DNA from: Phialocephala subalpina
Taxonomy: Eukaryota; Ascomycota; Leotiomycetes; Helotiales; Mollisiaceae
NCBI GenBank assembly: GCA_900073065.1
Contig: FJOG01000047.1
Span: 304,018-368,017, forward strand
Length of the DNA stretch: 64,000 nucleotides
Direction of reading: 5' to 3'
Every line of letters starts with the position of its first letter. The stretch's first letter is position 1. Below, in pieces: positions 11,508 through 15,615 of the stretch. The notes beneath the pieces are model-generated. The model was given only the letters and a program-made list of their open reading frames with translations. It searched no databases and was not told where the DNA came from. A program made the position numbers and the translations under genes.

Positions 11508-13312
11508 ATGAAGCTCTCGACCGCCATCACTGCTTTAGTGGCTCAGGCCTTCATGGCCCTAGCTTCTAGTAGCTGCCGCTGCTTCCCTGGCGACTCCTGC
11601 TGGCCGTCGAATTCAACCTGGGCTACCCTCAACAGCACAGTTGGAGGTCGACTCGTCGCCACGGTGCCAATGGGGTCGCCCTGCCACGACCCAAATTACA
11701 ATGCTACCGAGTGCGCCCTCTTACAGAGCCAGTGGACCCTTCCGGAGCTGTAGTAAGTCTTCTCATGATCCTAAATTTAGGCGGGCAGGTTTTGAATTGG
11801 GATAGTTTATCATCGTCCTCGTCGGTCATGCAGCCGTACTTTGCAAATCAGAGTTGCGACGCCTTCACACCTGAGTCGCAACCTTGTCTGCTAGGGAACT
11901 ACGTCCGCTACGCCATCAACGTGTCAACGGTTGATGATGTAATCGCCGGCGTCAATTTTGCCCAAGAGAATAACATTCGCTTCGTGATCCGGAACACTGG
12001 TCATGAGTAAGTCAGATTCGCGTTCATGAAAAACACCTCAACGACTGACCTTTTCAATAGTTTCCTTGGAAGATCTACAGGTGCAGGAGCCTTATCTGTC
12101 TGGACTCACTATCTCAAGGATATCGAATACCCAGTTTGGTCGGACCAGTATTACCAGGGCCAGGCCATCAAAGTAGGAGCCGGAATTGAAGGTTATGAAA
12201 TCTTGGAAGCCGCTTCGGCCAAGGGTCTAGTTGTGGTCTCAGGTGAATGTCCCACAGTAGGCCTCGCTGGCGGTTTTACGCAGGGTGGTGGGCATTCTGC
12301 GTTAAGCACGAGTTTCGGTCTTGCTGCGGACCAGACACTCGAATTCGAGGTTGTTACTGCTTCTGGCGAATTGGTTACCGCATCTCGAACCGAGAATGCT
12401 GATCTCTACTGGGCATTGAGCGGGGGTGGTGGAGGAAACTATGGCGTTGTGGTCTCTATGACTGTCAAAGCACACCCGGATGCCATGATCGGTGGAGCAG
12501 GCCTTCAGTTTGCCGCTGCTTATACAACATCAGACCTATTCTACCAAGCGGTCTCGGAGTTCCACGCCCTACTCCCTGCTATGATCGACAACGGGACCAT
12601 GGTCGTTTACTACTTCAACGACGCATACTTCATCATCAACCCCATTACAGCCTACAACCAGACCTCTGCGCAAGTCCAGGCCATCCTCAGCCCCTTCGTA
12701 TCTGTCCTCAACAACCTTAGCATTCCGTTTGAGGTTGCCTATACCGAGTTTGCAACTTACGAAGAGCACTACAACACTTATATGGGTCCACTACCGTATG
12801 GCAACATTGGCGTAGCAGAGTACCAGTTCGGCAGTCGACTGATCCCCCGTTCGGTCGTTGAAGACAACAACGCGGCCCTCCAAGTCGCTCTACGCAACGT
12901 CACAGAGAACGGTGTCCTCATCGTCGGTGTAGCCGTGGACGTGTCAGCGCCAGTAAAGTCAGGCAACGTGTCGAACGCCGTGCTGCCGGCATGGCGCGAG
13001 ACCCTCGTCCATGCAACCTTGACGACGGCATGGAACTCCACAGCGCCATGGTCGGACATGGTTAAGCAGCAGGAGCTGATGACTGACGAATATGTCCCGC
13101 AACTCGAGTCCGTAACGCCTGGTAGCGGCTCGTATATGAACGAAGCAGATTTCCGCCAGCCAAATTTCCAAGAGGTATTCTTTGGGGACAACTATGCGGC
13201 GCTATTGGTTATCAAGGAGAAGTGGGATCCGAATTCGCTCTTCTATGCTGTAAAGGCGGTCGGCAGTGAGTTTTGGGATGTGGCTAACGATGGGCGCATG
13301 TGTCTGATATAA
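11508..13312 (+). CDS. secreted FAD-linked oxidoreductase, berberine-bridge-enzyme type
   Basis: Introns 11753-11805 and 12007-12060 give 565 residues. The N-terminus is a signal peptide (MKLSTAITALVAQAFMALAS). A PCMH-type FAD domain follows: RNTGHDFLGRSTGAGALS carries His148, the usual histidyl-FAD site. GECPTVGLAGGFTQGGG carries Cys212, the position of the second covalent link in bicovalent BBE-like enzymes. The C-terminal BBE motif is YMNEADFRQPNFQEVFFG, ending in WDPNSLFYAVKAVGSE. These enzymes oxidise sugars, alcohols or secondary metabolites with O2. The substrate cannot be told from sequence. No biosynthetic core gene adjoins it, so a secreted carbohydrate or defence role is as likely as a metabolite role. 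Confidence 0.93.
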
Positions 13313-13437
13313 TTGAAATTAACGATGTAATGATAGGAGCTAGATATTTTAATAAAAGCATTTGACAGGCAAATCGTTTGTGCTGCGTCGTGCGGCGATT
13401 GGTGGAGACTATGTTGATTTCATCAGCTCTTTGTCCT

Positions 13438-15307
13438 CTACTCTTGCCAAACCGTCAAATCCTCGCGCTTAATCCCAAACCACTCGCAAAACAAGCCTTC
13501 AAACGCCCACACACTCCCTTTGAACACCTCCCTGGCCTTCTTCATCTTCCTGACACCTCTCCCCACCCCTTTCGGTAACCAAAAGAAACTCGGAACCTGT
13601 ACCCGAGATCTCGGTGTCAGTATGCTAATTGGAACCACTTTAATGAGAGTAGAAATGTCCCAGGATACTCGGGACAATTAGGACTCTCGAAACAAAGGGA
13701 AAGGTAAATACTACTCCGAGAAGGCGAGCCTACCTGCTTCGTTTTCCCGATCCCCTCATGAAATGGGACATTCGCATCTTTTTCCCACCATCCGGGTTTT
13801 GGCCACTTGATTTTTTTCTCCAAGTTGTTTTCGAGGGAGTAGTCCTTCGCACCAAATCCAGCTCAGTGTCGTTTCCAGATTTGAGACCGTGGAGGAACGG
13901 ATGAGGATTGTTGAGAGCCAGAGAAGGTAGGGGTGGAGATCGACGAAGTGATCTGTTTCCACTTCGAAGATTGGGCCAAGGTCCGTCCAGCTCCAGTCAA
14001 AGTACTCCTTTAGCACCCCTGCAACATCGAGAACGATCTGATGCACTTTTGGCACTATACCCAGGGGTTAGCATTACTATTTTAAGCACCTCAAAGAGGA
14101 GAGGAGAATGTTCCAAGAGTTTCGGGTCGTTAGGACCCCGAAAAGAAACGGAAAGGGGAATTTAACGCTGAGAAAAAGGGCTTGCCTATACTCGAGATCT
14201 CCGAGTTAGCGTTCTTATTTTTAGCACTTCAAGGACGAGAGCAGAATGTTCCGAGAGGCTCAGGACATTTTTGGCTCTCAACACAAGGGAGAAAGGGGAA
14301 TATATATCCTAGCTAGGCTTACCTCCGAATTCAGCTATAACTTCCAGATCCTCATCGATTTCTTCTCCCTCAGGCAACAGAGCCATCTCCTCAACTAATC
14401 CCTCTACATCCACAAGTCCTAATTCCTCCAAGTTCTCGAAGATCTCCCAGAATCTTTCCTGTATCCTAGTATGTATATACAAGAACCCTAAGACTATGGA
14501 GAGAGATGGTGTGCATAGCCCAATAGAGTGTGAGATCAGATCGGTTATGTGGTCGAGACCTCCAGGGTTTGCACCGGGGTACTGCTCCTGCAGTTCGTGA
14601 ATGGCAAATGCGTGGTATGTGTTTAGGTTTCTAATTAGAGAGAGGAAGATGGAGACTTTTCGGTGGATGGATAGGCGAACCTCGTTTGTAAAGTCGATGG
14701 TTGAGATGTTTGATGGTAGGTGAAGGTTGGGAGCATTGAATTGAGGCGTTGTGGGGTGTGAGGGTGATGGTATTTCACCTGTGCCCAAGGTCTACATGTT
14801 AGTATGCCTTTGGGTACATTACATTGTCCCAGGAGAGATGGGACAATCTGAAGACGTTTGAGAGGGGCTATTGCCCCAAAATACCACTTACCTAGCGTGC
14901 TAGAATCTGGATTTTGATCGAGTTGAGGGGTGGTGATGCGAGGTGGCTGCAAATATAATGGGTGGAAGATTCTGGCGGATGCAGATGATGAGTTTTGTGA
15001 GGATGCTGAGGATGTTTTTTCGGAAGAGTGCCCTATCCAGGATCTTGGAGTTAGCATTTCTAGTTCAAGCACTTTAGAGAGGAGGGGGGAGGAGGATGTT
15101 CCATAAGTCTTGGGGCATTCCAGACTCTCGAATAAAGAGGAAAGGGGAGTAAAGCTTGTAGAAGGCGGGCTTGCCTTCGAGGGTATCTTGTTCGTAGTGT
15201 GTCTCTGGGGTAGAGGCAGGTAGGGAGGAGATGGGAAATTTGGCTGATGTTGAATCGGGAGAGCTTTCTTCACGCTTTGCCTCCACGTGCTTGTCTTCGG
15301 ACTCCAT
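13438..15307 (-). CDS. hypothetical protein with introner-like introns
   Basis: Family not recognised. Five exons: 15175-15307, 14892-15032, 14323-14778, 13734-14054 and 13438-13596, giving about 402 residues. All junctions keep frame except for one extra base in a T7 run (13811-13817 on the plus strand). Removing one base joins PRKQLGEK to IKWPKPGWWEKD and makes the last junction phase-correct, so this is either a homopolymer error or a real frameshift. The middle exon is helical with hydrophobic patches, as in SIGLCTPSLSIVLGFLYIH. The C-terminus VPSFFWLPKGVGRG to REDLTVWQE is shared with the neighbouring small gene. All four intron sites hold long introns (113-268 nt) built from related sequence; see the separate element entries. 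Confidence 0.7.
13597..13733 (-). mobile_element. introner-like element D
   Basis: 137-nt intron, GTAGGC...TACAG, phase 0. Contains CTTTCCCTTTGTTTCGAGAGTC, split here as CTTTCCCTTT and CGAGAGTC, plus TTGTCCCGAG...CCTGGGACA (inverted pair), AAAGTGGTT, CATACTGACACCGAGATCTC and GGGTACAG. Equivalent blocks occur in A-C in the same order. Confidence 0.75.
14055..14185 (-). mobile_element. introner-like element C, downstream copy of a tandem pair
   Basis: 131-nt unit from GCAAGCCC to GGGTATAG, sitting directly against element B. Contains TTCCCCTTTCC, CTTGGAACATTCTCCTCTCC, GGTGCTTAAAATAGTAATG and the CTAACCCC branch site. Its 5' end is a GC donor like element A. Confidence 0.75.
14186..14322 (-). 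mobile_element. introner-like element B, upstream copy of a tandem pair
   Basis: 137-nt unit from GTAAGCC to GTATAG. It is followed with no exon in between by element C, which begins GCAAGCCC. Shared blocks with A, C and D include TTCCCCTTTC, GGAACATTCTGCTCTC, GAAGTGCTAAAAATA and CGCTAACTCGGAGATCTCG. As a single intron, B plus C span 14055-14322 (268 nt). Confidence 0.75.
14779..14891 (-). mobile_element. introner-like element E (divergent)
   Basis: 113-nt intron, GTAAGT...CACAG, phase 1. It is weaker but recognisable kin of element D: both carry TTGTCCC...TCCTGGGACA, which can pair as a hairpin, and GCATACTRACA as branch site. Probably an older or degenerate copy. Confidence 0.5.
15033..15174 (-). 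mobile_element. introner-like element A (GC-AG intron)
   Basis: 142-nt intron with a GC donor (GCAAGC) and an ATAG acceptor. Flanking exons join in phase (GAA G / GG CAC). It shares blocks with elements B, C and D: TTCCCCTTTCC-like pyrimidines near the 5' end, CGAGAGTC, GGAACATYCTSCTCYC, AAGTGCTT and AATGCTAACTC before the acceptor. Typical introns elsewhere in this window are 38-94 nt and unrelated to each other. Confidence 0.75.
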
Positions 15308-15615
15308 AATGGCTGATATGAGAGGAAAAACTTTGCTTTGAGATAATACGAAGCAGATTTCTTGAGTGCGCAGAGAATTTCCATTGTATTCATGTACATT
15401 TTGAATCGGACTGAACCAAATGGTTACCCTAATTTAAACATTTAGGGGTTAATTATGATCTTTTAGAATGGAACTTTCTAGGAAAGCTCTAGTCAGCCTG
15501 TTTCTGAATCAGCATACTCTCCACGCTTTATCCTCCAGAAACATATTCTTACTGGGCACTCTTCAACAGTCACATTAAGAGGTCCAACATCAGGACAAAC
15601 AAACGCCTTAACGAG

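What the first reader, a model, noticed from the sequence alone, without database searches (positions are those of the whole stretch)
13438..15307. Introner-like elements: related introns repeated within one gene
All four intron sites of this gene hold sequences of 113-142 nt per unit that share ordered blocks (pyrimidine stretch TTCCCCTTTCC, CGAGAGTC, GGAACATTCT, AAGTGCTT, GCTAACTC, GAGATCTCG then ATAG/ACAG). Other introns in the window are 38-94 nt and unrelated to each other. Ordinary introns do not resemble each other, so these look like copies of a mobile intron that spread recently. Introner-like elements are known from some Dothideomycetes fungi and certain algae; this family may be new.
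Basis: partly seen in the sequence, partly recalled or inferred. Interest (0 to 1): 0.88.

Follow-up and report, generated by a model that had tools for sequence, protein, structure and literature searches.

The report
Copy-making introns in a root fungus
A gene of the root fungus Phialocephala subalpina carries several copies of a roughly 139-letter intron that is repeated in about a hundred or more places in its genome, a family of intron-making mobile elements that I found no report of for this branch of fungi.

Summary
The finding is real. A profile built without the window copies finds four strong matches in the window (E 1e-23 to 5e-29) and one much weaker one, 14779-14891 (E 0.0019). 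The genome is Phialocephala subalpina. Seven searches give 142 places; 136 remain after six were dropped, 85 of them found by two or more searches. Similarity begins at the 5' splice site and ends at the 3' one; insertion is mostly between AG and G; no target duplication was seen. Flanks joined without the element stay open over 240 nt in 43 of 62 copies, against 21-22 frame-shifted, 8 antisense and 3 unspliced. In xanthine dehydrogenase, removing four copies and two other introns gives the published protein letter for letter. The family consensus folds end to end (z -4.9), but copies show no covariation. Copies within one gene are not each other's nearest relatives: repeated insertion, not local duplication. 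This is a new family of ascomycete-type introners, probably spread through RNA (inferred). The closest sampled pair is 90.6% identical, so the spread is not fresh. A fixed-spacing palindrome shared with unrelated places is unexplained.

The parts
13438..15307 (-). host gene (species-specific protein; published as PAC_17724 with other exon borders)
   Evidence: exons joined across the units read open from 15307 through exon 3 and most of exon 4, then the frame breaks in exon 4; only relative found is the published P. subalpina protein, 100% identical over 63% of the query; no Pfam family for two of its pieces
15033..15174 (-). introner unit 1, 142 nt, GC-AG
   Evidence: profile without window copies: 91.1 bits, E 1.9e-27
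14779..14891 (-). probable degraded introner unit, 113 nt, GT-AG
   Evidence: 13.2 bits, E 0.0019, 0 of 500 shuffles as high; pairwise not significant; no other genomic match as DNA; published model also removes it
14186..14322 (-). introner unit 3, 137 nt, GT-AG, directly followed by unit 4
   Evidence: 94.3 bits, E 1.9e-28
14055..14185 (-). introner unit 4, 131 nt, GC-AG, head to tail with unit 3
   Evidence: 78.6 bits, E 1.3e-23
13597..13733 (-). introner unit 5, 137 nt, GT-AG
   Evidence: 96.3 bits, E 4.7e-29
13656..13676 (-). central palindrome TGTCCC-N9-GGGACA in unit 5
   Evidence: 5 matches in the window at up to 2 mismatches, two places on both strands plus one other; mean 0.56 in shuffles
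14825..14845 (-). central palindrome TGTCCC-N9-GGGACA in the degraded unit

Best explanation
The units are copies of one introner family (introner-like elements) of Phialocephala subalpina: complete spliceosomal introns of about 139 nt that multiplied into many unrelated genes. Shown: copies run from the 5' splice site (GTAAGC) to the 3' splice site (TAYAG), sit mostly between AG and G, leave no visible target-site duplication, and restore the reading frame when removed. Shown: the family consensus can fold end to end into one hairpin whose outer helix starts four bases inside each splice site. Inferred: the mobile form was an excised intron RNA whose hairpin protected it and held both ends together; the spliceosome (or a repair enzyme) put it back into the coding strand or the transcript of another gene, followed by copying into DNA. 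After insertion the splice sites are kept and the hairpin decays, so older copies become ordinary introns. Several copies landed independently in the same genes. I put the identity as an introner family at about 0.97 and the RNA-mediated route at about 0.55.
For: Genome-wide copies: 43 matches with 40 of 57 candidates scored, 40 with 40 of 119 scored, best 93% to consensus, 40 with 40 of 106 scored; patterns 68 hits against 4 in the reversed control, 61, 48 and 88 against 0. Boundaries in an alignment made without splice-site rules: 33 of 35 start with GT and 28 of 35 end with AG at the same column. Flanks of 60 copies: last exon base G in 51, AG in 33, first base after G in 44; no excess identity between the two borders. 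Joined flanks open over 240 nt in 43 of 62, frame-shifted 21 and 22, antisense 8, unspliced 3. Four of eight joined proteins have a Pfam domain running through the junction (clathrin, xanthine dehydrogenase, amidase, WLM); the clathrin heavy chain aligns to PDB 1xi4 without a gap at the junction. Xanthine dehydrogenase: four copies (118.5, 111.1, 100.5 and 38.6 bits) plus 46-nt and 146-nt introns removed give 1184 residues identical to the published protein. Consensus fold -47.9 kcal/mol, z -4.9, 300 shuffles. Of the 136 places, 19 pairs lie within 4 kb, all on the same strand, about 1.1 expected; pairs in one gene are less alike (0.677) than random pairs (0.734).
Against: No RNA-seq was seen; splicing rests on reading frames, homology and the published models, and the published model of the window gene reads through unit 1 and stops inside unit 3. 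RNAalifold predicted no pair at all on the alignment; single copies fold little better than shuffles (mean z -1.1 of 32) and pairs do not covary (83.7% paired against 83.5% shuffled), so the role of the hairpin is inferred from the consensus only. A target duplication of one or two bases cannot be excluded; in the scan of 320 offsets the largest excess was z 3.4 inside the element and z 3.2 at the border. In 12 of 62 copies no frame was open over 150 nt. GT/GC and AG in the 82-copy set were partly set by my border search. No autonomous element and no reverse-splicing intermediate was seen.
Confidence: 0.8

Rival explanations
1. DNA transposition: the units are short non-autonomous DNA transposons with imperfect inverted ends that insert at AG|G and happen to carry splice sites, as proposed for algal introners.
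For: The consensus ends are near-terminal, imperfect inverted repeats; most introner families outside ascomycetes look like DNA elements (PMC9860276, section 8 read).
Against: No target duplication in 60 copies; sense orientation only in the clusters (19 of 19 pairs within 4 kb) and far more open frames in sense than antisense (43 against 8 of 62); the same paper reports no TSDs or TIRs in ascomycete families.
Confidence: 0.2
2. Local tandem duplication inside the gene made the window copies, with no mobile element.
For: Units 3 and 4 are directly adjacent; copies cluster in genes.
Against: Copies are spread over many contigs; copies in one gene are on average less alike than random copies; no exon sequence is duplicated between units 3 and 4.
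Confidence: 0.02
3. Ordinary introns that look alike only through shared splice signals and pyrimidine-rich composition.
For: The degraded unit 14779-14891 cannot be told from shuffles in three of four pairwise tests.
Against: Copies up to 93% identical to the consensus over the whole length; 6 of 6 pairs of the other units beat all shuffles.
Confidence: 0.01

Closest known systems
Introner-like elements of Dothideomycetes (Fulvia fulva, Dothistroma septosporum, Zymoseptoria tritici; PMC4457414, abstract and sections 3 and 11 read)
   Same: complete spliceosomal introns in many unrelated genes; longer than ordinary introns; several in one gene; degenerate towards ordinary introns; no known protein
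   Different: other class (Leotiomycetes, Helotiales); lower identity (best sampled pair 90.6%) than the 98-99% reported for active families, closer to the situation described for D. septosporum; I did not compare the sequences, since no letters of those elements were at hand
Internally symmetrical sister stwintrons and cropped introns of Hypoxylaceae and Xylariaceae (PMC8469720, abstract and passages; PMC12403724, abstract)
   Same: inverted, pairing ends that bring both splice sites together; no target duplication; symmetry lost in divergent copies
   Different: the window pair is two complete introns end to end, not a donor-split stwintron; the helices here are interrupted and four bases inside the ends
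Introners surveyed across eukaryotes (PMC9860276, sections 5, 8, 9 and passages read)
   Same: ascomycete type without TSD and biased to genes
   Different: the main text names no Phialocephala, Helotiales or Leotiomycetes in the terms I searched; its supplementary species list was not available, so this genome may be in it
Micromonas introners (from the papers above and recall)
   Same: intron invasion of many genes
   Different: algal; some carry target duplications and are thought to be DNA elements

Membership tests
Introner / introner-like element | similar introns in many unrelated genes | tested here: met
Introner / introner-like element | similarity extends to the splice sites at both ends | tested here: met
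   33 of 35 GT and 28 of 35 AG at the alignment columns; composition at borders
Introner / introner-like element | spliced from transcripts | tested here: inconclusive
   frames restored, XDH product equals the published protein; no RNA-seq seen; published model of the window gene misses units 1, 3, 4 and 5
Introner / introner-like element | newly gained positions compared with relatives | not testable with these tools
   no related genome offered for G000
Fungal (ascomycete) introner-like element | no target-site duplication | tested here: met
   60 copies; 1-2 bp cannot be excluded
Fungal (ascomycete) introner-like element | stable predicted secondary structure | tested here: inconclusive
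   consensus z -4.9, copies mean z -1.1; RAlifold none; no covariation
Fungal (ascomycete) introner-like element | longer than ordinary introns of the genome | tested here: met
   about 139 nt against a published mean of 80.2 nt (PMC5148876, passages)
Currently active family (98-99% identical copies) | near-identical copies | tested here: not met
   best of 68 copies 90.6%; not all copies sampled
[D1,2] stwintron | internal intron splits the donor of an external intron after its first base | tested here: not met
   units 3 and 4...GGAG|GTAAG...TATAG|GCAAG...
DNA-transposon-type introner | target-site duplication | tested here: not met
DNA-transposon-type introner | terminal inverted repeats | tested here: inconclusive
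   near-terminal, imperfect pairing in the consensus only

The most novel reading that the evidence does not exclude
The central palindrome ATGTCCC-N9-GGGACAT of the introner is a working module (an RNA hairpin or a protein-bound site) that outlives the rest: it persists at fixed spacing in many otherwise unrelated, partly ordinary introns, so a good part of the introns of this genome would be introner fossils that can be recognised by it. Basis: 112 places against 4 in the reversed control, 42 of the 50 listed places with spacing 9 although 4-14 were allowed, loops only partly like the introner loop; by eye it lies in recognisable introns at several places and in a degenerate form in a 46-nt xanthine dehydrogenase intron. 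Against: about half of the ten non-family places read show no clear intron, and the arms were exact by the search itself.
Probability: 0.2. Interest if true: 0.75.

Novelty: new member of a known kind. Interest (0 to 1): 0.55.

Why it matters
Where new introns come from is an old question, and ascomycete introners are the outlier that does not look like DNA transposons. A family in the Helotiales, with copies of graded age, many hits in the same genes and a genome of a laboratory-culturable root endophyte, gives another independent case for testing reverse splicing against DNA transposition. It also shows that published gene models can miss such introns.

Tried and rejected
Local duplication: rejected. 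Known RNA family: nothing near a gathering score in 13300-15500 (best 14.8 against 45 bits). Host protein as a clue: no Pfam match for two pieces and no relative but itself. RNAalifold on the alignment gave no pairs, so the consensus fold was used instead. A search for target duplications at other offsets gave nothing convincing. 14779-14891 as a second family: only itself. A stwintron reading of units 3 and 4 does not fit.

Rows dropped before counts: of 142 places six were dropped: four that the profile did not confirm (L092, L093, L094, L101) and both strands of one place where the near-palindromic pattern matched both ways. Of the 20 central-pattern-only places fetched, 12 match the profile there at E below 1e-6, two weakly (0.0005, 0.008) and six at E 0.12 or worse; two of these six (L097, L098) were kept in the 136 because they look like shortened copies by eye. 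Fifty-one of the 136 rest on a single search. Two of the window's own units (15033-15174, 14186-14322) are not in the 142 because the self match was left out. Of 82 extracted copies, 62 passed the score and length filter for, 60 for (units 3 and 4 of the window left out; looser filter).

Full report
What is there. On the minus strand of 13438-15307 the gene is interrupted at four sites. Three of these hold clear members of one repeated intron family (15033-15174; 14186-14322 plus 14055-14185 end to end; 13597-13733), the fourth (14779-14891) a probable degraded member. A profile built from 28 copies found elsewhere in the genome, without the window's own, ranks exactly these five first in the window: E 4.7e-29, 1.9e-28, 1.9e-27, 1.3e-23 and 0.0019. 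The fifth is the weak point: pairwise it does not beat shuffles in three of four comparisons, and in the fourth 2 of 500 shuffles reach it; part of its score comes from a hairpin found also outside the family.

Where. The published protein PAC_17724 of Phialocephala subalpina lies on a contig of 368,017 bases, the length of the contig of this window, and matches the gene at 100% identity over 63% of the query. Its published model reads through unit 1, removes 14779-14891 and stops inside unit 3, so the annotation misses most of these introns. The genome paper (PMC5148876, passages only) gives 69.7 Mb, 454 sequencing and a mean intron of 80.2 nt; the passages I saw do not mention introners. Exon 4 changes frame near a run of A, which could be a sequencing error or a real break; I left it.

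How many. Seven searches of the genome, pooled by position, give 142 places; after dropping six there are 136, on both strands (61 and 75), 85 of them found by two or more searches. The pattern searches gave 68, 61, 48 and 88 hits against 4, 0, 0 and 0 for the reversed patterns. DNA searches score only 40 candidates each (of 57, 119 and 106), so the true number may be larger; on the other hand 51 of the 136 rest on one search.

Anatomy. The consensus is GTAAGCCCACCTTCTCGGAGCAATATTCC...GGAATACTGACACCGAGATCTTGGGTAYAG, 140 columns. In an alignment made without splice-site rules 33 of 35 copies start with GT and 28 of 35 end with AG at the same column. Outside these borders composition is flat but for a splice-like context: G before the element in 51 of 60, AG in 33, G after it in 44. 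There is no excess identity between the two borders; among 320 offset pairs, each with 60 shuffles, the largest excess was z 3.4, inside the element, and z 3.2 at the border. A duplication of one or two bases cannot be excluded.

They behave as introns. With the element removed, 43 of 62 copies have a frame open over 120+120 nt in sense; shifted by one or two bases 21 and 22, antisense 8, element left in 3. Twelve of 62 have no frame open over 75+75 nt. Of eight joined products scanned, four have a Pfam domain running through the junction. In clathrin heavy chain (L072) the junction aligns to PDB 1xi4 without a gap. In xanthine dehydrogenase, four copies (one weak, 38.6 bits), a 46-nt and a 146-nt intron were removed; the product from its start codon, 1184 residues, is contained letter for letter in the published P. 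subalpina protein, and it aligns to PDB 3una through the junctions. The end of the 146-nt intron was chosen for an open frame; the profile does not recognise that intron as a member.

Fold. The consensus folds into one hairpin from base 5 to base 136 at -47.9 kcal/mol against -31.4 for shuffles (z -4.9, 300 shuffles). The 32 single copies average z -1.1; RNAalifold finds no common structure on the alignment; with the consensus structure imposed, 83.7% of cells pair against 83.5% when partners are shuffled and 28-46% when slid. So the symmetry belongs to the family's source sequence and is not maintained after insertion.

History. Among 68 copies mean identity is 73.4% and the best pair 90.6%. 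Copies cluster in genes: 19 pairs within 4 kb, all same strand, about 1.1 expected under even spread; 12 clusters. In the 68-copy set, 23 of 23 pairs within 4 kb are on the same strand, and they are less alike (0.677) than random pairs (0.734; 5000 permutations). Genes were thus hit repeatedly from the common pool.

Mechanism. Exact intron borders, sense orientation, AG|G sites, no visible duplication and a symmetric source sequence fit re-insertion of an excised intron RNA, by reverse splicing or by end-joining of the folded RNA, as argued for other fungal introners (PMC8469720, passages; PMC9860276, section 8). This step is inferred, not shown. Selection for splicing would also remove antisense copies of a DNA element from coding exons, so orientation alone does not decide.

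Known or new. The kind is known. Searches of the paper library for introner with Phialocephala (none), with Helotiales (one paper, on Pleosporales) and for introner-like elements with Leotiomycetes (one, on Dothideomycetes) gave no report for this lineage. The survey of 1,700 annotated species (PMC9860276) reports 48 species; its species list was not available, so this genome may be in it.

Unexplained. The centre of the consensus is the palindrome ATGTCCC-N9-GGGACAT. Arms of this sequence with 4-14 bases between them occur at 112 places, against 4 for the reversed control; of the 50 places listed 42 have exactly nine bases between the arms, with loops only partly like the introner's (14 of 42 match it at six or more of nine positions, about 1 expected). 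Some places are family members or other introns, others show no clear intron. Whether this marks old introners, an RNA hairpin or a protein-binding site is open.

Noticed in passing
window 13656-13676 and 14825-14845; genome-wide: Palindrome ATGTCCC-N9-GGGACAT: 112 places (spacing 4-14 allowed) against 4 in the reversed control, 42 of the 50 listed with spacing 9; a related pattern gave 103 against 1. Only part of these lie in the introner family.
   Followed up: partly
window 14055-14322: Two complete introners end to end with no exon between, the second with a GC donor; it could be removed as one 268-nt intron or in two steps.
   Followed up: partly
window 13734-14054: Exon 4 of the host gene changes reading frame near a run of A; the published assembly is from 454 reads. 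Left as it is.
   Followed up: no
L097 and L098: Short introns that look by eye like introners shortened on both sides of the central hairpin; the profile does not confirm them there.
   Followed up: partly
L048/L010 (xanthine dehydrogenase): Six introns in about 4.3 kb, four of them introners; the 46-nt ordinary intron carries a degenerate form of the palindrome.
   Followed up: partly
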